From NCBI GenBank assembly GCA_018663035.1, contig JABJEX010000007.1, positions 1 through 32,591 of the forward strand: 32,591 nucleotides of DNA, given 5' to 3'. Source of the DNA: Porticoccaceae bacterium (lineage in GTDB: Bacteria; Pseudomonadota; Gammaproteobacteria; Pseudomonadales; Porticoccaceae). A model generated the notes under the pieces. The model searched no databases. It saw only the letters and a program-made list of their open reading frames with translations, and was not told where the DNA came from. Position 1 is the stretch's first letter, and every line of letters starts with the position of its first letter. Positions 6,738 through 32,591 of the stretch are shown piece after piece. A program made the translations under genes and the position numbers.

Positions 6738-7913
6738 CTAGCGCGATAACACCTGCATGCCTTTCTCGAGACCGCTCAGGGTCATGGGGTACATCTTATC
6801 CTCAACGAGCTCTTTTATCATGGTAATTGAGGGTGTGTACTCCCAGTATTTTTCCTGAACCGGATTGATCCAGATCAGTTTCTCGTAGGTCTCGGCCATG
6901 CGTTGCATCCAGACTGCGCCTGACTCTTCGTTGTGATACTCGACGCTACCACCGGGGCTGGTGACTTCGTAGGGTGCCATGGAAGCATCCCCAACATAGA
7001 TCACTTTGTAGTCTGAAGAATACTTGTGCATCAGATCAAAGGTCGATATCTGCTCTTCTCGACGGCGATGATTATCTTTCCAAACATAGTCGTACATGCA
7101 GTTGTGAAAGTAGAAGTATTCAAGATGTTTGAATTCTGTTTTTGCCGCAGAGAACAGCTCTTCACAGAGCCTTACATAGGGGTCCATGGAACCACCAACG
7201 TCAAAAAAGATCAGCACCTTGACGGCGTTGTGGCGCTCTGGAACCATCTTCAGATCTAAAAAACCTGCATTGCGAGCTGTGCTGCGGATAGTGTCATCGA
7301 GGTCAAGCTGGTCTGCTGCGCCCTCTCGGGCAAACTTGCGCAGGCGTCGCAGTGCTACCTTAATGTTGCGGGTGCCAATCTCTACGGAGTCATCTAGGTC
7401 CTGATACTGACGCTCATCCCATACCTTCACCGCAGTGCCCTTACCACCGGGACCACCAATACGGATACCCTCGGGATTGAAGCCCCCATGACCAAAGGGT
7501 GAGGTGCCATTGGTACCTACCCATTTATTGCCGCCCTCGTGGCGCTCTTTTTGTTCTTCGAGGCGCTTTTTAAACTCTTCGATAAGCTTTTCTAAGCCAC
7601 CGAGGCTTTCTATTTTAGCTTTTTCTTCTTCCGTAAAGTGCTTTTCAAACTCTTGCCGCAACCAGTCCTCTGGAATCAGCGCCTCAATAATGCCATCGAC
7701 ATTTTCGAGATTTTTAAAGTAGGCACCAAAGGCTTTGTCAAAACGGTCGTAGTACTTTTCATCCTTGACCATAATGGTGCGCGCCAAAAGATAAAAGTCA
7801 TCGATAGAACCAAAGGCAAGTCGTTTCTCCATAGCCTCCAGAAGCACCAGTAGCTCCTTGACGGAGACTGGAACCTTGGCTCTTTTAAGCGTGTAGAGAA
7901 AGTTAATTAGCAT
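6738..7913 (-). CDS. VWA domain protein, CoxE-like, partner of MoxR
   Basis: This 391-aa protein resembles the CoxE-like von Willebrand factor A family that is normally encoded next to a MoxR AAA+ ATPase. The N-terminal half is helical and highly charged, with a likely coiled coil around 95-125 (EEEKAKIESLGGLEKLIEEF). A Gly-rich linker follows (135-160). The VWA domain begins near 230, with the metal-site motif FFDVGGSM at 237-243. The usual DxSxS reads D238-V-G240-G-S242, so the first serine is glycine. From memory this substitution is common in the family. The gene lies 12 bp after the MoxR gene. MoxR/VWA pairs are known as chaperone-like systems for assembling or activating protein complexes; the client here is unknown. 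There is no signal peptide or membrane segment, so it should be cytoplasmic. Confidence 0.88.
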   Translation of the reverse strand: MLINFLYTLKRAKVPVSVKELLVLLEAMEKRLAFGSIDDFYLLARTIMVKDEKYYDRFDKAFGAYFKNLENVDGIIEALIPEDWLRQEFEKHFTEEEKAKIESLGGLEKLIEEFKKRLEEQKERHEGGNKWVGTNGTSPFGHGGFNPEGIRIGGPGGKGTAVKVWDERQYQDLDDSVEIGTRNIKVALRRLRKFAREGAADQLDLDDTIRSTARNAGFLDLKMVPERHNAVKVLIFFDVGGSMDPYVRLCEELFSAAKTEFKHLEYFYFHNCMYDYVWKDNHRRREEQISTFDLMHKYSSDYKVIYVGDASMAPYEVTSPGGSVEYHNEESGAVWMQRMAETYEKLIWINPVQEKYWEYTPSITMIKELVEDKMYPMTLSGLEKGMQVLSR

Positions 7914-7925
7914 GGCGGCAACTTT

Positions 7926-8771
7926 TTACTGTGCTGCGCGACGGGTCATAAAGGCCAATCGTTCTAGTAAGTGAACGTCCTGCTCGTTCTTTAACAGCGC
8001 ACCATACAGCGGGGGAATTGCTTTAGTGGGATCGCGATTAGTCAGAATGTCTTCGGGAATATCGTCCGACATAACCAACTTTAACCAGTCAACCAGCTCT
8101 GAGGTTGATGGCTTTTTCTTTAGGCCTGGTATTTTGCGCACATCAAAGAAAATATCCAGAGCTTCATCCACCAGAGTCTTCTTAATTTTGGGGAAGTGCA
8201 CATCGACAATACGCTGCATGGTCATGCGGTCTGGGAAGTTAATAAAGTGGAAGAAACAGCGGCGCAAAAATGCGTCTGGCAGCTCTTTCTCATTGTTACT
8301 GGTAATAATCACAATCGGACGCTGCACTGCCTTAATGGTCTCGCCAGTCTCGTAGACGTGGAATTCCATCTTATCCAGTTCAAGCAACAGGTCGTTGGGG
8401 AATTCAATATCGGCTTTATCGATCTCGTCGATCAGCAGGACAACCTGCTCATCGGCTGTGAAAGCTTCCCAGAGCTTACCTTTGTCGATGTAGTTAGCAA
8501 TGTCATGTACCTTGTCACTGCCGAGCTGAGAATCGCGCAGACGGGACACTGCATCGTATTCGTAGAGCCCCTGCTGAGCTTTGGTGGTGGATTTGATATG
8601 CCAGCACAGCAATGGTTTGCCGAGAGCCTTGGCGACCTCTTCCGCGAGCATTGTTTTACCTGTTCCCGGCTCGCCTTTGATCAGCAGCGGGCGCTGAAGT
8701 GTGACCGCAGCGTTTACCGCCATCTGCAGCTCGTCGGTGGCTACATAGTTATCTGTTCCAGTAAATTTCAT
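7926..8771 (-). CDS. MoxR family AAA+ ATPase
   Basis: This 281-aa AAA+ ATPase of the MoxR class shows Walker A GEPGTGKT (33-40), Walker B LLIDEIDKAD (Asp115, Glu116), sensor 1 in PIVIITSNNEKELPDA, and the arginine finger region AFLRRCFFHF. The family is thought to remodel or mature protein complexes together with VWA partners, and the next gene is such a partner. An upstream in-frame GTG (8786) would add five residues. I prefer the ATG at 8771 because relatives start with M-[KR]-F-x-GT and the GTG has no Shine-Dalgarno sequence. The divergent small-peptide transcript begins about 100 bp away, so the two promoters share one intergenic region. Confidence 0.92.
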   Translation of the reverse strand: MKFTGTDNYVATDELQMAVNAAVTLQRPLLIKGEPGTGKTMLAEEVAKALGKPLLCWHIKSTTKAQQGLYEYDAVSRLRDSQLGSDKVHDIANYIDKGKLWEAFTADEQVVLLIDEIDKADIEFPNDLLLELDKMEFHVYETGETIKAVQRPIVIITSNNEKELPDAFLRRCFFHFINFPDRMTMQRIVDVHFPKIKKTLVDEALDIFFDVRKIPGLKKKPSTSELVDWLKLVMSDDIPEDILTNRDPTKAIPPLYGALLKNEQDVHLLERLAFMTRRAAQ

Positions 8772-8818
8772 ATCTTCTGAATCCACATCATTGGGTTAGT
8801 CTTTGCGTTTAGCCCAGC

Positions 8819-8848
8819 ATAATAATCTAAACCGCACTATTTTTTGAA
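8819..8848 (-). promoter_or_regulatory. Possible sigma-70 promoter for the moxR-VWA pair
   Basis: Reading the minus strand, TTCAAA (8848-8843) is separated by 18 bp from TATTAT (8824-8819), 48 bp ahead of the MoxR start. The -35 match is poor. The element overlaps the plus-strand TGAATC box of the divergent ECF-type element, so the two promoters could compete if both are real. Confidence 0.25.
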
Positions 8849-8874
8849 TCTAAATCACTTCTAGACCGCGTCAT
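8840..8874 (+). promoter_or_regulatory. ECF-type promoter, copy 1 (small peptide gene)
   Basis: TTTTTTGAATCTAAATC (8840-8856) is followed after 12 bases by CGTCAT (8869-8874). The TGAATC and CGTC boxes are exactly 18 bp apart. The same two boxes at the same spacing occur at 9262-9296 ahead of the operon that encodes an ECF sigma factor. ECF sigma factors recognise paired short boxes of this layout, often with CGTC in the -10, and usually activate their own promoter. Assigning this element to that sigma factor is inference. A transcript would start near 8880 and have a leader of about 120 nt. Confidence 0.6.
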
Positions 8875-9001
8875 AATTATGAAAATTGGTAAAAAGTATG
8901 ACCGCGGAGTACTTACCGGATTTTCGCTGTCATAGAAAATAGATTATGCGGACATGCATGATCTTGATTTTTAAAGTCCCTCAGAGGACATGGAGAAAGT
9001 A

Positions 9002-9103
9002 ATGAAAACGGACCTAATCAGAAACTTCTTGCTCGCTGTAACCATTTACCTAGTACCTGTAATGCTAACCACTGTGGTGATCGGTAGCTTAGCCAACGCC
9101 TAA
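9002..9103 (+). CDS. 33-codon membrane micropeptide, unrecognised
   Basis: This short open frame encodes 33 residues beginning MKTDLIRNFLLAVTIY and ending IGSLANA. It is preceded at good distance by a clear ribosome binding site (GGAGAAAGTA then ATG). After a short positively charged N-terminus (Lys2, Arg7) the rest is almost entirely hydrophobic, with one proline in the middle. It therefore looks like a single transmembrane helix, or a secreted peptide ending in a signal-peptidase-like Ala-x-Ala (ANA). It has its own candidate ECF-type promoter 130 bp upstream and an intrinsic terminator about 105 bp downstream, so it could be an independent transcript. I do not recognise the family. Small inner-membrane peptides under stress sigma factors are known elsewhere, but no function is claimed. 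Confidence 0.65.
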   Translation: MKTDLIRNFLLAVTIYLVPVMLTTVVIGSLANA

Positions 9104-9207
9104 AATAGACTGATACCTTAGCTTCAAATATTAGCTGCACAGGCTAGATGCGCAGCATAAGCCTAACCTATGTAACCTGCTAAACAGCCACTATTCTGCT
9201 AACAAGC

Positions 9208-9239
9208 AAACCTCTGCGCTGCTGGTGCAGAGGTTTTTT
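9208..9239 (+). terminator. Rho-independent terminator after the micropeptide gene
   Basis: CCTCTGC (9211-9217) pairs with GCAGAGG (9227-9233) over a 9-nt loop. A run of six T follows (9234-9239), with A residues ahead of the stem that extend the pairing. It is a textbook intrinsic terminator, and the A-rich left flank could also let it work on the opposite strand. It separates the micropeptide transcript from the sigma-factor operon. Confidence 0.88.
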
Positions 9240-9261
9240 GCTCGCAAATGCTAAAAGATAC

Positions 9262-9296
9262 TTTTTTGAATCCAAATCGTCCGATCAGAACGTCCT
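9262..9296 (+). promoter_or_regulatory. ECF-type promoter, copy 2 (sigma-factor operon)
   Basis: TTTTTTGAATCCAAATC (9262-9278) is followed after 12 bases by CGTCCT (9291-9296). The TGAATC and CGTC boxes are 18 bp apart, exactly as in copy 1. The first 17 bases differ from copy 1 at one position, while the 12-base spacer is largely different. The element lies about 90 bp ahead of the first gene of an operon that encodes an ECF sigma factor, where an autoregulated promoter is expected. Confidence 0.65.
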
Positions 9297-9382
9297 ACTG
9301 ATGAACACTAAGATTGCCTGGCATTCGATGCTGCTCTTAGAATAACCTTTACCCACAGCTTTAAACGCTATAGGAGTTACTA

Positions 9383-10207
9383 ATGAAGACCAGTTTATTA
9401 AAATCCCTGCCGCTAACAGCAGCACTACTGATGCCATCCGCCTTTGCCACCGAGCCTGCCGAACAACAGGATGCTGTCAAGCAAACCTTTGAGAAGCACG
9501 TAGAGATGGTACTGTCGGCATCGGAAGATGGCCCAGAGAAAACTATGAAAATAGTGGTCCGTGGCTCTGATGATGGCGAGACTAAAACTTGGATAACCGA
9601 CGTAGACAGCGATAGCGATGAGGTTAGTCCTAGCAGCGAGGCGGATAATACGCTTATCCGCTTCCAGTCATCAGAAGATGGCATTGCCTCGATTAAGAAA
9701 GTTATTAAAACCCTCGCCATGACTGAATGGCAGGACCTCAGCAAGGAAGACAAGGAAGAGCTGCTAGAAACTCTTGAGAATCTCGATGACGATATGGAGT
9801 TAGAGGTACGCCATGATATCGAGTTAAACAGCGACTCTGACGCCAAATCGATTATTGCCATTATCGCGGTCTTTGGCTTGCCGCTGTTTCTCCTAATTGC
9901 CGTCCTTTACTACAAGCATAGAAAGCGCATGGTCAAGGTAGCGCTGGTTAAAGATTATCTGGATGCAGGAAAAGATGTACCAGCTGATGTGCTGGTGGCA
10001 ATCAATGGTGGCGAACCTGATGCTCCAGCAGATAGTTTCCAAAGTGCTGTGCGTAACATAGCTATAGGTGCCGGACTGTTTCTTTTCTTAGGCCTCATGA
10101 TTGACTGGGATCTCGCCGCAGTAGCCTTGATTCCGCTGTTTATAGGTATTGGCAAACTGATTGTGTGGCGCATGAATAGAGATGCCACTGACAATCAGGC
10201 CGACTAG
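9383..10207 (+). CDS. Membrane protein with acidic exported domain (DUF6249-like)
   Basis: This 274-aa protein has an N-terminal signal peptide (MKTSLLKSLPLTAALLMPSAFA, likely cleavage near residue 22). A highly acidic, presumably periplasmic region (about 23-153) follows, rich in Asp, Glu and Ser. The C-terminal half has three hydrophobic segments (about 156-177, 225-240 and 243-262). A basic stretch (YKHRKRMVKVALVKDYLDAGKDVPADV) follows the first helix. This stretch recalls the DUF6249 membrane domain, an assignment made from memory. A strong ribosome binding site (AGGAGTTACTA) precedes the ATG. It is the first gene of a three-gene operon with the ECF sigma factor 8 bp downstream. It could therefore be a sensor or effector of that regulon, but its function is unknown. 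Confidence 0.82.
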   Translation: MKTSLLKSLPLTAALLMPSAFATEPAEQQDAVKQTFEKHVEMVLSASEDGPEKTMKIVVRGSDDGETKTWITDVDSDSDEVSPSSEADNTLIRFQSSEDGIASIKKVIKTLAMTEWQDLSKEDKEELLETLENLDDDMELEVRHDIELNSDSDAKSIIAIIAVFGLPLFLLIAVLYYKHRKRMVKVALVKDYLDAGKDVPADVLVAINGGEPDAPADSFQSAVRNIAIGAGLFLFLGLMIDWDLAAVALIPLFIGIGKLIVWRMNRDATDNQAD

Positions 10208-10215
10208 GACAGCTA

Positions 10216-10776
10216 GTGGTCGCTACTGACCAGGCACTGATCGAGAGAGTCGCAGCAAGCCATTGTCGCGACTCTTTCTCGATTCTGGTAGAACGTCATC
10301 AGTCGGATCTGCGCTATTCGCTGCGTCAGATGACCGGATGGGATAAGGCGTTGGCCGACGATCTTGCTCAGGAAACCTTTATCAAAGCCTTTCAGGCTAT
10401 AGGTAGTTATAAAGCAGAGGCCAAGTTTAGTAGCTGGCTCTACCGCATCGCCTATAACCAAATGATCAGCCACTTTAGACTGGCTAGAAATCGAGAGATT
10501 ACCGGCATTGAAGAAAGCCTGATCAACGAGAGAGAAAATCTAGTTAGCGGCGAGTTTCTTCAGCAGGAGCTGCACCAGGATCTAGCTCGGGCCATGCGGC
10601 AGCTGCCGACTCAGCAGCGGATGGCGATCCATCTATACTTGCATCGGCAGTTAACTCATCAGGAGATCTGTACTATTATGGAGATCCCATTGGGCACGGT
10701 TAAGACCTGTATAACCCGCGGCAAAGCCACACTGAGAGATCTACTGTCCAGCTGGAAAAACGAGGAAGCACTATGA
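10216..10776 (+). CDS. ECF (group 4) RNA polymerase sigma factor
   Basis: This 186-aa sigma-70 family factor has only regions 2 and 4, as in the extracytoplasmic function group. Region 2 spans about 19-88, with DDLAQETFIKAF (48-59, core RNA polymerase contact) and KFSSWLYRIAYNQMISHFR (-10 recognition). Region 4 spans about 125-178 and contains the helix-turn-helix LTHQEICTIMEIPLGTVKTCITRGKATL (-35 recognition). The GTG start at 10216 is supported by an AGGA six bases upstream and by the 8-bp gap from the preceding gene. The next gene overlaps by 4 nt (ATGA). Such factors direct envelope, oxidative or light-stress regulons under an anti-sigma factor. The subgroup cannot be settled by eye. The two TGAATC-N18-CGTC elements upstream are its likely targets. 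Confidence 0.93.
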   Translation: MVATDQALIERVAASHCRDSFSILVERHQSDLRYSLRQMTGWDKALADDLAQETFIKAFQAIGSYKAEAKFSSWLYRIAYNQMISHFRLARNREITGIEESLINERENLVSGEFLQQELHQDLARAMRQLPTQQRMAIHLYLHRQLTHQEICTIMEIPLGTVKTCITRGKATLRDLLSSWKNEEAL

Positions 10777-11096
10777 GTAAGGTAACAGACATCGACAGTT
10801 TATTTGTTGAGGCCCGCAACAGCGAACCCTATTTCAATGATCAGGGATTTGTCAGCAGCGTCTCGGCCATGTTGCCGGCTGGTAGAAAAGTATCTGTGGG
10901 TCAGGAAACGGCAGTTACCATTGCTGCCACTGTTCTCGGTAGCGCTGTGGCCTATCCTTTTTTCCCTATCGGGGACATTCTGGCACTGATTCCCAACAGC
11001 ATTACGATTACTCCAATTGGCCTGCTAGCGGCCTCTAGCCTTGTCTCTGGCCTAATTTACTGGCTTGCCGAGCATGCTGCTCCCAACAGGATGTAA
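10773..11096 (+). CDS. Small two-helix membrane protein, candidate anti-sigma factor
   Basis: This 107-aa protein overlaps the sigma-factor gene by 4 nt and so is probably translationally coupled to it. The first ~45 residues are polar and presumably cytoplasmic, with the stretch FNDQGFVSSVSAMLP. Two hydrophobic segments follow (about 47-65 and 81-98). Position and topology, a short cytoplasmic head plus membrane anchors right after an ECF gene, are those expected of an anti-sigma factor. I see no zinc-binding HxxxCxxC motif of the ZAS class. The gene stops a few bases before the convergent oxidoreductase gene. The anti-sigma role is inference; the coding assignment is firm. Confidence 0.75.
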   Translation: MSKVTDIDSLFVEARNSEPYFNDQGFVSSVSAMLPAGRKVSVGQETAVTIAATVLGSAVAYPFFPIGDILALIPNSITITPIGLLAASSLVSGLIYWLAEHAAPNRM

Positions 11097-18054: not shown

Positions 18055-18199
18055 CAGGGCCGCGCAATCAAAGTAAAATAAGCGTCAAAAATAGCCCTAA
18101 GAGGGGGTAGTTCTTCACTTCCTAGGCCAGCTTGTTTACACTGCCTCGCAACTAGTCGAACCTATGACTGGACCAATAATAATTAAGGAATCTGACCTT

Positions 18200-19852
18200 A
18201 TGAAACTGACTTCTATAGCATCGAGTTCAACCCTGATTTCAGCTATTGCACTGTGCCTAGTGTCAAGCCTTCTACTGAGCGGTTGCGGCAGCTCAGAAAG
18301 CAATGTTGAAGCAGGCAATCGCACTGGTACGTTGCACTGGGGTAACGGGACAGAGCCACAGAGCCTGGATCCGCATATTGCCACTGGTGTTCCAGAGCAC
18401 CACATTATTAAGGCCCTGATGGAAGGGTTGGTGCATAAGGACAGTGAGTCGTTGGGACCAACCCCTGGGGTTGCCGAGTCTTGGACAGTCAGCGACGATG
18501 GCACTGTATATACGTTTAAGATTCGCGACGACGCTCGCTGGTCTAACGGTGATGTGCACAATGCCCATGACTTTGTCTGGTCTTGGTGGCGCGCACTGCA
18601 GCCCGCACTGGGTAATCTCTACGCCTATATGTACTTCCCGATCGTCAACGCCCGGGAGTACTACATGGGTGAGGTCACTGACTTTGATCTTGTCGGCGTT
18701 AAAGCACTTGACGATCTGACTCTGCAGGTCACTCTGGATAACCCTACCCCCTATTTCCTGCAGCTGCTAGATCATTACAGTATGTTCCCCGTACATCAGG
18801 CCACATTAGAAAAGTTTGGCGCTCCCGATGAGCGAGGCACTCGCTGGACCTATGCAGGTAATATGGTTGGCAACGGGGCATTCAAGCTGACCAGCTGGGA
18901 GATCAATCGCGCTATTGAGGTGGAACGCAATACGTTCTACTGGGGCAACGATGATGTTCGACTAAACAAGATTATTTTCTACCCCACTGAGAACACCACG
19001 ACCGAGGAGCGCATGTTCCGTGCTGGTCAGCTGCACTACACCAATGATGTCCCGATAGATAAGGTTGCCACCTATCGTGAAGCCAATGACCCAGCTCTGC
19101 GCGTCACGCCTTATCTGGGCACCTATTACTACAGGGTTAATATCCGCGAGCCCCACCTGCAGGACAAACGCGTGCGTCGCGCGCTGGCCATGACCATTGA
19201 TCGGGAAAAAATTACCGAGAATGTAATCAAGGCAGGACAGATTCCAGCCTATGCAATGACGCCGCCCAATACCAGAGGCTACTACCCACCGATCAGCCTG
19301 AGCTTCGACCCAGAAGCCGCTCGTCAACTGCTGGCTGAAGCAGGCTATCCCAACGGCGAGGGTTTCCCAGTCACTGAGATTCTGTACAACACAAACGAGG
19401 GCCATCGCAAAGTAGCCGTGGCAATTCAGCAAATGTGGCGTGAGCATCTAAATATCGAAGTGAAACTGCTCAACCAAGAATGGAAGGTATATCTCGATAG
19501 CGAGAGCAATGGCGACTATCAGATTTCCCGGGCGGGCTGGATTGGCGACTATGTAGACCCCAACAATTTCCTAGATATGTTTATCTGTAATGGCGGCAAC
19601 AACCGCACTGGCTGGTGTAACGAAGAATACGATCGCCTAGTGTTGGATGTAGCTCCCAGAGCCAAGACTCACGAAGAGCGTATGGCTGTCTTTACTCAGG
19701 CTGAACAGATGCTTTTGGATGATCTTCCGGTACTGCCCATTTACACCTATACCACCAAGCATCTCGTACACCCCTCGATGAAAAATGTTGCCTCCAATAT
19801 TATGGATCAACAGTCTTACCGAGAAATTTATCTTGAGGGAGATCAAGACTAA
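18200..19852 (+). CDS. oppA: Oligopeptide-binding lipoprotein (OppA-type, SBP family 5)
   Basis: This 550-aa extracytoplasmic solute-binding protein captures peptides for an ABC importer. The N-terminus is a lipoprotein signal, with lipobox LLSGC at 25-29 and acylated Cys29 followed by GSSES. The SBP family 5 signature appears as TEPQSLDPHIATGVPEHHIIKALMEGL. Later segments such as VRRALAMTIDREKITENV and WIGDYVDPNNFLDMF are typical of OppA/MppA proteins. An upstream in-frame ATG (18164) would spoil the signal, so I use 18200, preceded by AAGGAA. It heads a four-gene operon and overlaps oppB by one base (TAATG). OppA is the best fit, but ligand specificity (oligopeptide or murein peptide) cannot be read from sequence. 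Confidence 0.93.
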   Translation: MKLTSIASSSTLISAIALCLVSSLLLSGCGSSESNVEAGNRTGTLHWGNGTEPQSLDPHIATGVPEHHIIKALMEGLVHKDSESLGPTPGVAESWTVSDDGTVYTFKIRDDARWSNGDVHNAHDFVWSWWRALQPALGNLYAYMYFPIVNAREYYMGEVTDFDLVGVKALDDLTLQVTLDNPTPYFLQLLDHYSMFPVHQATLEKFGAPDERGTRWTYAGNMVGNGAFKLTSWEINRAIEVERNTFYWGNDDVRLNKIIFYPTENTTTEERMFRAGQLHYTNDVPIDKVATYREANDPALRVTPYLGTYYYRVNIREPHLQDKRVRRALAMTIDREKITENVIKAGQIPAYAMTPPNTRGYYPPISLSFDPEAARQLLAEAGYPNGEGFPVTEILYNTNEGHRKVAVAIQQMWREHLNIEVKLLNQEWKVYLDSESNGDYQISRAGWIGDYVDPNNFLDMFICNGGNNRTGWCNEEYDRLVLDVAPRAKTHEERMAVFTQAEQMLLDDLPVLPIYTYTTKHLVHPSMKNVASNIMDQQSYREIYLEGDQD

Positions 19853-31774: not shown

Positions 31775-32591
31775 TTAGTTTTTGTTATCTAGTCTGTCCA
31801 GCACCGCCTGAGCACGCGCCTGACCCAGGTCGTCTGCTTCGCCAATAATTTCCTCTAGGATCTCTCGGGCACCCTCTGAATCACCCATTTCGATATAGGT
31901 ATTGGCTAGGTCTAGCTTAACGTCCACAGGGTTGATCTCTGCCACATCATCGAGATCTTCAAAATCATCTAGGCTAGTGGAAAATACATTTAGCTCGTCG
32001 TCGGCAGCAACCTGAGCACCGCTGTCTGAACTCTCCACTGGAGTTATATCGGCGAAGATTCCACCGTCCATAAAGCCATCATCAAGGAAGTCTTCGTCGA
32101 GAACCGAGGCGGCCAGTTCATCGATATCCTGATCACCTACCAGCTCTAGATCTTCTAAGTCATCGCTAGCGGTTCGCGGATTTACCTCTGATGTTTGTTG
32201 TACGGATTCCTCTGAGCCTGCAACTTCGGGGCTGTCTGCTGCCAGCTTTTCTGGCTCTTCATCCATGTGCGCCGCTGGTTCCTCGCTGGGCTCAGCTTTG
32301 TTATTTGGCTGAGGCTCTTTATCTAGCTGAGGCTCTGTATCTGGCTGAAGCTCTTTATCTAGCTGAGGCTCTGCATCTTGATGAGGCTCTGCATCTTGAT
32401 GAGGCTCTGCATCTGGCTGAGGCTCTTTAACTGGCTGAGGCTCTGCATCTTGCTGAGGCTCTAAATTCGGCTCAGTGATGGCTAGGTTATCTGTGACGTC
32501 GGCTAGGCTGTCTTCCTCGCCGACTGGCGCAGAGGTTCTGCGCAACATAACAAGCAGCAACAAAATAAGGGCTCCGAGCCCACCCCAGACA
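31775..32591 (-). CDS. fimV: FimV/HubP-like polar protein, C-terminal part, 5' partial
   Basis: The frame is open to the right edge, so only the last ~270 residues are seen. They begin with a membrane helix (VWGGLGALILLLLVMLRR). A long acidic, Pro/Glu-rich cytoplasmic region follows, with an 18-bp tandem repeat. The C-terminal FimV domain is about the last 60 residues (VDVKLDLANTYIEMGDSEGAREILEEIIGEADD), a TPR-like helical pair. FimV/HubP proteins organise the cell pole, including type IV pili, twitching and chemosensory components. The LysM domain expected upstream is outside the window. The downstream truA neighbour supports the call. Confidence 0.92.
   Translation of the reverse strand, partial: VWGGLGALILLLLVMLRRTSAPVGEEDSLADVTDNLAITEPNLEPQQDAEPQPVKEPQPDAEPHQDAEPHQDAEPQLDKELQPDTEPQLDKEPQPNNKAEPSEEPAAHMDEEPEKLAADSPEVAGSEESVQQTSEVNPRTASDDLEDLELVGDQDIDELAASVLDEDFLDDGFMDGGIFADITPVESSDSGAQVAADDELNVFSTSLDDFEDLDDVAEINPVDVKLDLANTYIEMGDSEGAREILEEIIGEADDLGQARAQAVLDRLDNKN
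32311..32472 (-). repeat. Nine 18-bp tandem repeats in fimV
   Basis: Nine contiguous 18-bp units span 162 bp. On the plus strand they resemble GAGGCTCTGCATCTTGAT. Two neighbouring units (32365-32382, 32383-32400) are identical and the rest differ at a few bases. The coding strand gives a hexapeptide close to Q-x-D-x-E-P in the acidic linker after the membrane helix. The unit length keeps the frame, so copy number can change without breaking the protein. Confidence 0.92.

What the first reader, a model, noticed from the sequence alone, without database searches (positions are those of the whole stretch)
8840..9296. Two matched ECF-type promoter elements flanking a micropeptide gene
Directly visible: TTTTTTGAATCYAAATC occurs at 8840 and 9262. 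In both cases CGTC follows TGAATC after exactly 18 bp, while the 12-base spacer is largely different. Sequence kept in two short boxes at fixed distance, with a freely changing spacer, is what a shared sigma factor leaves behind. The second copy precedes an operon that encodes an ECF sigma factor, where an autoregulated promoter is expected. Inference: the sigma factor controls both its own operon and the 33-codon gene, a minimal local regulon. I found no third copy in this window.
Basis: partly seen in the sequence, partly recalled or inferred. Interest (0 to 1): 0.75.

Follow-up and report, generated by a model that had tools for sequence, protein, structure and literature searches.

The report
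Sigma-factor promoters flanking orphan signal peptide
Two matching switch sequences, very probably read by the stress sigma factor encoded next to them, control that factor's own operon and a tiny gene that appears to be a detached signal peptide of the operon's first protein.

Summary
TGAATC-N18-CGTC occurs exactly twice in the window, at 8845 and 9267; about 0.05 copies are expected by chance. Comparative evidence supports both as promoters of the ECF sigma factor encoded at 10216-10776. The box precedes the DUF6249-sigma-membrane-protein operon in 15 of 18 same-genus genomes found with the sigma gene; the other 3 carry a variant. Across 35 genomes a longer pattern has 44 matches against 4 for the reversed control; 2 of the 44 fall in the 19 genomes with neither sigma ortholog nor operon promoter.

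The "minimal local regulon" is not right. The window's own genome has a third site before a DUF885 gene, conserved in several relatives. Relatives add tolC-like and HlyD-like genes.

The "micropeptide" is an orphaned signal peptide: it matches the DUF6249 signal peptide of single-promoter relatives. P1 (8845) is the ortholog of their operon promoter. P2 (9267) and a new DUF6249 signal peptide were seen only in the clade G000/G018/G028. The peptide is under purifying selection between G000 and G018 (dN/dS about 0.14). Its function is unknown. A second conserved element, ATGACC-N3-SAGTAYT, sits 53 bases after the start of the P1 -35 box.

The parts
8840..8872 (+). P1: ECF promoter, TTTTTTGAATCTAAAT (-35 region; TGAATC at 8845-8850) and CGTC (-10, 8869-8872)
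   Evidence: ortholog of the single operon promoter of relatives, next to divergent moxR
8898..8913 (+). conserved leader element ATGACCGCGGAGTACT (ATGACC-N3-SAGTAYT), 53 bases after the start of TGAATC
   Evidence: 17 matches in 16 of 35 genomes, 4 control matches; offset 53 in 13 of the 16
8941..8964 (+). hairpin in the P1 leader (function unknown)
   Evidence: -11.3 kcal/mol, z -3.95
9002..9103 (+). 33-codon ORF, MKTDLIRNFLLAVTIYLVPVMLTTVVIGSLANA, orphan DUF6249-type signal peptide
   Evidence: profile match and codon test
9205..9245 (+). probable intrinsic terminator between the 33-codon ORF and P2
   Evidence: RNA fold -21.6 kcal/mol, z -3.82, with a T run; the scan, which allows loops of 3-8, did not list it
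9262..9294 (+). P2: ECF promoter, TTTTTTGAATCCAAAT (TGAATC at 9267-9272) and CGTC (-10, 9291-9294)
   Evidence: present in the 3 genomes of this clade, G000, G018, G028
9383..10207 (+). DUF6249 membrane protein with an ordinary short signal peptide (by eye), first gene of the operon
   Evidence: PF19762 E 1.3e-21
10216..10776 (+). ECF sigma factor
   Evidence: PF04542, PF08281; TIGR02937
10773..11096 (+). 107-residue protein with two likely membrane helices (by eye), probable anti-sigma factor (inferred from position and conservation)
   Evidence: no Pfam family, no NCBIfam family near its cut-off; found beside sigma in 13 of 13 genus relatives
7926..8786 (-). divergent MoxR-type AAA ATPase, conserved neighbour (not part of the regulon as far as shown)

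Best explanation
P1 and P2 are two promoters of the ECF sigma factor encoded at 10216-10776. P2 drives the DUF6249-sigma-membrane-protein operon (positive autoregulation). P1 drives a short transcript that ends at the terminator near 9240 and carries one conserved leader element and the 33-codon ORF. P1 is the ortholog of the operon promoter of relatives: in those with a single promoter it is followed by the same leader element and directly by the DUF6249 gene, whose signal peptide is what the 33-codon ORF encodes here. In the clade of the window (G000, G018, G028) the signal peptide stands apart as its own unit, and the operon has its own promoter and an ordinary signal peptide. The sigma factor also reads a distal promoter before a DUF885 gene and, in relatives, promoters before tolC-like and HlyD-like genes, so it is probably an envelope or efflux stress regulator. 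Shown by comparison: conservation and co-occurrence of the boxes, homology of the peptide, purifying selection on it in one species pair. Inferred: direct recognition by this sigma factor, transcription units, the anti-sigma role of the third gene, the stress type, and any function of the peptide.
For: Two exact matches against 0.047 expected. TGAATC-N18-CGTC upstream of the operon in 12 of 14 sigma-bearing genomes of the first set and 3 of 4 of a held-out set. TGAATCYAW-N15-CGTC: 44 matches in 35 genomes, 4 for the reversed pattern; 35 in the 14 sigma genomes, 7 in two partial genomes that have the operon promoter near a contig end, 2 in the other 19. In the held-out 15 genomes, 6 matches fall in 4 sigma genomes and 2 in 11 others, both of the latter within ORFs or antisense to one. 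DUF885 site conserved; tolC-like site 122 bases before the ATG in 7 genomes. Peptide: 20.6 and 23.0 bits (G000, G018) to the profile of relatives' DUF6249 signal peptides, best of 2000 shuffles 11.8, best of 402 other ORF starts 7.6. dN 0.116, dS 0.80 between G000 and G018, 13 of 20 differences at codon position 3, p 0.004. Clade G000/G018/G028 supported 100/99. Terminator fold.
Against: No expression data. Three sigma-bearing genomes (G002, G015, G062) lack the exact box and show a variant (TGAATCC or CGAATCC, GCATCTWA) at another spacing. Of 34 wider loci with a DUF6249 gene, only the three Porticoccaceae ones have the box at a sensible place. Of 12 tolC-like loci re-examined, G000, G018, G032, G002, G015 and three genomes without a sigma ortholog (G010, G022, G025) showed no site, and G028 could not be read. 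The G028 copy of the ORF has ACG for ATG and little codon bias against G000 (20 of 50 differences at position 3, p 0.20). The tree does not settle whether the separate peptide or the fused signal peptide came first. The review read in passages gives AAC as the usual ECF -35 core, whereas this box has AATC. At least 4 of the 44 matches lie inside ORFs.
Confidence: 0.82

Rival explanations
1. The 33-codon ORF is only a relic: after P2 took over the operon, the old start of the DUF6249 gene was left behind P1 and is decaying; P1 matters, if at all, for its leader RNA.
For: In G028, which the tree makes sister to G018, the ATG is ACG while P1 and the leader element are kept.
Against: dN/dS about 0.14 between G000 and G018, like the neighbouring membrane protein gene (0.13); an intact 30-codon ORF persists in G010, which has no sigma ortholog; third-position excess also in G000-G010 (19 of 39, p 0.03), G018-G010 (22 of 44, p 0.02) and even G028-G010 (23 of 39, p 0.0009), though not G028-G000 on the same 30 codons (18 of 43, p 0.15).
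Confidence: 0.35
2. The two boxes are operator sites of an ordinary regulator, not sigma-factor promoters.
For: Two short boxes at fixed distance would also fit a dimeric regulator.
Against: TGAATC and CGTC are not repeats of each other (by eye); CGTC is an ECF-type -10 (CGT core); sites occur before the sigma operon itself and co-occur with the sigma gene.
Confidence: 0.06
3. P1 and P2 are read by another ECF sigma factor of the cell and the linkage is incidental.
For: G000 has four matches to this sigma protein, three of them weak; crosstalk between ECF factors is possible.
Against: The box tracks the linked ortholog: of the 19 genomes of the first set with neither the ortholog nor the operon promoter, 17 have no match at all, although nearly all have weak sigma paralogs.
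Confidence: 0.08

Closest known systems
Autoregulated ECF sigma / anti-sigma operons (RpoE-RseA type; review PMC8103513, passages read)
   Same: two-domain sigma factor, co-encoded small membrane protein, own promoter with -35 and CGT-type -10 boxes, envelope-type targets
   Different: -35 core is AATC rather than AAC; DUF6249 protein as first gene; a second promoter of the same type upstream of a separate peptide gene; no RseB or DegS type protein among the seven window proteins scanned
DUF6249 (PF19762) proteins encoded beside ECF sigma genes in Cellvibrio, Microbulbifer, Verrucomicrobia and others
   Same: same gene order, DUF6249 then sigma
   Different: no TGAA[AT]C-N16-19-CGT box at a sensible place upstream in the loci examined (37 of the 80 returned); relatives of the peptide were sought outside the genus only in four order-level loci, none found
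Remnant signal peptides and small membrane proteins degraded by RseP (PMC10470546, abstract read)
   Same: a free signal-peptide-like membrane helix in a cell with ECF pathways
   Different: here the signal peptide is its own gene behind an ECF promoter; no protease link was tested

Membership tests
ECF sigma factor | only sigma regions 2 and 4, short linker | tested here: met
   PF04542 at 24-91, PF08281 at 121-173 of 186 residues; TIGR02937
ECF sigma factor | conserved -35 and CGT-type -10 boxes at fixed spacing upstream of own operon (autoregulation) | tested here: met
   exact in 15 of 18 sigma-bearing genus genomes, variant in 3; autoregulation itself not shown
ECF sigma factor | AAC in the -35 box (early hallmark in PMC8103513) | tested here: not met
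   TGAATC; TGAAAC only at P1 of G028. The same review says the definition was later restricted to the sigma2 and sigma4 domains
ECF sigma factor | cognate anti-sigma factor | tested here: inconclusive
   small membrane protein in 13 of 13 genus relatives (13 of 14 sequences aligned), no family match; structure prediction was not accepted
ECF sigma factor | direct recognition of the promoter | not testable with these tools
   needs a transcription assay
DUF6249 signal peptide (33-codon ORF) | sequence match above shuffled and unrelated starts | tested here: met
   20.6 bits against 11.8 and 7.6
DUF6249 signal peptide (33-codon ORF) | same genomic position (behind P1 and its leader element) | tested here: met
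functional small protein | selection on the encoded residues | tested here: met
   dN/dS 0.14, p 0.004 for codon position 3 in G000-G018; G000-G028 not significant
functional small protein | translation | not testable with these tools
   needs ribosome profiling or tagging

The most novel reading that the evidence does not exclude
A signal peptide that carried a regulatory function of its own has been cut loose from its protein and is made as a free membrane peptide under control of the same ECF sigma factor, for example as feedback on the membrane-bound anti-sigma step or as a decoy for the protease that clears signal peptides and cuts anti-sigma factors.
Probability: 0.15. Interest if true: 0.75.

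Novelty: new variant of a known kind. Interest (0 to 1): 0.45.

Why it matters
It gives a testable target motif and a first candidate regulon (own operon, DUF885, tolC-like and HlyD-like genes) for an ECF system of Porticoccaceae for which the paper searches showed no description. It also offers an unusual case in which relatives show the same signal peptide fused to its protein, split off as a separate gene, losing its start codon, and left alone without the operon, which makes the question of whether a signal peptide acts after cleavage directly testable.

Tried and rejected
The leader element ATGACC-N3-SAGTAYT was considered as a short leader peptide (MT-x-[EQ]-Y). I hold this less likely because codon 3 varies freely, frame lengths differ and no ribosome-binding site stands before it (by eye); this is not decisive, because the search pattern itself fixes the third bases of codons 2 and 4, and G059 has ATGACT. 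It was considered as an RNA hairpin: the consensus fold of 5 leaders is weak, -2.3 kcal/mol with a positive covariation term. A shared element in tolC-like leaders looked likely at first, but part of that stretch is also seen (by eye) in tolC-like upstream regions without the sigma site, so it may belong to a housekeeping promoter. The resemblance in the G023 DUF885 leader overlaps the ribosome-binding site and is probably chance.

I first suspected tandem duplication of the whole 5' part; no remnant of mature DUF6249 coding sequence was seen by eye between the ORF stop and P2, so duplication is not shown. A plasmid search with the peptide gave no match. Paper searches: DUF6249 is in 1 held paper, on plant kinases (listing only); SAR92, Porticoccaceae and sigma factor gave 23 papers holding 2 of the 3 terms, and none of the 8 listed is on an ECF system by title and abstract start (listing only). 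The listings were not followed except for PMC8103513 (passages) and PMC10470546 (outline and abstract).

Rows dropped: the DUF6249 starts of G002 and G015 came out empty through a wrong start and entered neither profile nor decoys; G000, G018 and G028 were left out of the profile on purpose; 2 of 404 decoys proved to be DUF6249 starts and were not counted. In one search two TolB starts were mis-trimmed, corrected (0.32 became 0.38). TolB covers 8 and SurA 7 of the 9 genomes compared. One search examined 37 of the 80 loci. One search aligned 13 of 14 sequences.

Full report
OBSERVATION. TGAATC-N18-CGTC occurs twice, at 8845 and 9267; the only other match with one mismatch, at 19078, lies inside the ORF 18164-19852. 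With one mismatch allowed the count is ordinary (3 found, 1.37 expected). For the exact pattern, first-order Markov resamples give 0.047 on average, and none of 300 had two.

SURROUNDINGS. The sigma gene (10216-10776) encodes an ECF factor. It is preceded by a DUF6249 membrane protein gene (9383-10207, PF19762) and overlaps by four bases a gene for a 107-residue protein with two likely membrane helices (by eye) and no family (10773-11096). P1 lies beside a divergent MoxR-type ATPase gene. The window is contig C2 of a 2.0 Mb genome.

THE BOXES IN RELATIVES. Of 34 same-genus relatives, 13 have a close ortholog of the sigma protein (57-88% identity); the best matches of the others are weak paralogs (E 1e-18 to 1e-14). 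Upstream of the operon, TGAATC-N18-CGTC is exact in 12 of these 14 genomes, window genome included. G028 has it exactly at P2 and TGAAAC at P1. G002 and G015 have TGAATCC with GCATCTWA at one base shorter spacing (by eye). In a held-out set of 15 further genus genomes (first seen), 4 have the sigma ortholog. Three of these (G059, G066, G068) have the exact box before the operon, and G062 has a variant like that of G002. Together the box is exact in 15 of 18. Of 37 wider loci examined (L123-L159, of 80 returned), 34 hold a DUF6249 gene. A box was reported for 5 of these: three are Porticoccaceae (two of them the same records as G027 and G005), one lies 20 bases and one 423 bases from the start codon and these two are probably chance.

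GENOME-WIDE. The pattern TGAATCYAW-N15-CGTC has 44 matches in 35 genomes, against 4 for the reversed pattern. Of the 44, 35 lie in the 14 sigma genomes and 7 in G026 and G030, whose contigs end within about 500 bases after the operon promoter; 2 lie in the other 19 genomes. Four of the 44, besides the G030 operon promoter, lie inside ORFs of 100 or more codons and are probably background. In the held-out set, 6 matches lie in 4 sigma genomes and 2 in 11 others; of these two, one is antisense to an ORF and one within an ORF.

REGULON. The window's own genome has a third match on another contig, 91 bases before a DUF885 gene. DUF885 orthologs were found in 11 of 14 sigma genomes. Upstream of them the exact box is present in G000, G003, G014, G023 and G027, with a 17-base spacer in G028. 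G018 has TGCATC in its place (by eye). G005 has a site before an adjacent upstream gene. None was seen in G002, G015 or G032. Seven genomes (six with the sigma gene, and partial G030) have the box 122 bases before a tolC-like gene (one protein scanned, OEP domain), and G005 has one at 149 bases. Of the 12 tolC-like loci examined, G000, G018, G032, G002, G015, G010, G022 and G025 showed none and G028 could not be read. Other sites stand before HlyD-family genes (three), an MFS gene, a gene with a weak SHOCT match, two SnoaL-like genes (one scanned), a serine-hydrolase (Beta-lactamase family) gene and a gene that looks like a small mechanosensitive channel (by eye). So a purely local regulon is not supported, though the window genome has only one distal site by this pattern.

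THE 33-CODON ORF. A profile of the first 40 residues of the DUF6249 proteins of 10 single-promoter relatives scores the peptide at 20.6 bits and its G018 ortholog at 23.0. The best of 2000 shuffles scores 11.8, and the best of 402 other ORF starts 7.6. The ORF lies where the DUF6249 start lies in those relatives, behind P1 and its leader, and ends about where signal peptidase would cut (by eye). The window's own DUF6249 protein has a different signal peptide (11.7 bits). Between G000 and G018 the ORF shows dN 0.116, dS 0.80; 13 of 20 differences are at codon position 3, p 0.004. The 107-residue gene shows 0.106 and 0.80, the sigma gene 0.061 and 0.90. In G028 the ATG is ACG, although the remnant is recognised (23.6 bits with a profile that included the two peptides); 20 of 50 differences to G000 are at position 3, p 0.20. 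In a search of 50 genus genomes with the peptide, only G000, G018 and G010 match below E 0.01. G010 has no sigma ortholog, yet it keeps an intact 30-codon version beside a relative (by eye) of the FAD-oxidoreductase gene that flanks the operon on the other side in the window. Third-position excess to G010: G000 19 of 39 (p 0.03), G018 22 of 44 (p 0.02), G028 23 of 39 (p 0.0009). In the 9 single-promoter relatives compared, the signal peptide (mean pairwise identity 0.64) is as conserved as the C-terminal part of the protein (0.60), against 0.29 for the next 40 residues. In TolB it is 0.38 against 0.83, in SurA 0.57 against 0.85. This hints at a function beyond targeting, but it rests on two control proteins.

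ORDER OF EVENTS. G000, G018 and G028 form a clade (100/99) and share P2. A terminator stands before P2 in G000 and, by eye, in G018; G028 has a hairpin without a T run (by eye). The leader element follows P1, not P2, and marks P1 as the ortholog of the single promoter elsewhere. The pair G002/G015, placed outside the rest with weak support (68/85), has ordinary DUF6249 signal peptides (by eye) and no peptide match. Whether the fused or the separate peptide came first is open, because the deep branches are weak and the outgroup branches long.

LEADER ELEMENT. The pattern has 17 matches in 16 of 35 genomes: the 14 sigma genomes plus G026 and G030, with one extra in G006; the reversed pattern has 4. 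The offset from the start of the -35 hexamer is 53 in 13 of the 16, 54 in G028, and 105 and 124 in G002 and G015. G059 has ATGACT at offset 53. Its role is unexplained.

KNOWN KINDS. ECF factors usually autoregulate and were first described with AAC/CGT cores (PMC8103513, passages); here the -35 core is AATC. E. coli RseP eliminates remnant signal peptides, cuts small membrane proteins and cleaves the sigma regulators RseA and FecR (PMC10470546, abstract), which suggests, without any test here, how a free signal peptide could touch an ECF pathway. That some bacterial signal peptides act as messengers (enterococcal pheromones) is recalled, not looked up.

Noticed in passing
window 8898-8913; same element in 15 other genomes of the first set: ATGACC-N3-SAGTAYT leader element, mostly at a fixed 53-base offset from the P1 -35 box, in all 14 sigma genomes of the first set and in none of the 19 genomes with neither sigma ortholog nor operon promoter; role unknown.
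   Followed up: partly
L250 (G010:C1), 1501-1593: Free 30-codon version of the peptide gene in a genome without a sigma ortholog; a relative of the FAD-oxidoreductase gene that flanks the operon in the window follows directly.
   Followed up: partly
window 8819-8848, minus strand: Sigma-70-like promoter (TTCAAA-18-TATTAT) in front of moxR that would overlap the P1 -35 box; two such sites found in the region, 1.5 expected.
   Followed up: no
window 9314-9343, plus strand: Sigma-70-like site (TTGCCT-18-TAGAAT) between P2 and the DUF6249 gene, in a stretch nearly identical in G018; possible housekeeping promoter of the operon, at chance level as a match.
   Followed up: no
window 31775-32563, minus strand: ORF with an acidic repeat (EPQPDAEPHQDAEP...) in its N-terminal half.
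   Followed up: no
L143 (CAMAXE010000016.1): Record titled Klebsiella pneumoniae whose contig length (106910) equals that of G042:C16, a genome placed in the window's order; the title is probably a mislabel.
   Followed up: no
window 6738-8786, minus strand: MoxR-type ATPase and VWA (CoxE-like) pair, found next to the sigma operon in 12 of 13 genus relatives examined.
   Followed up: no
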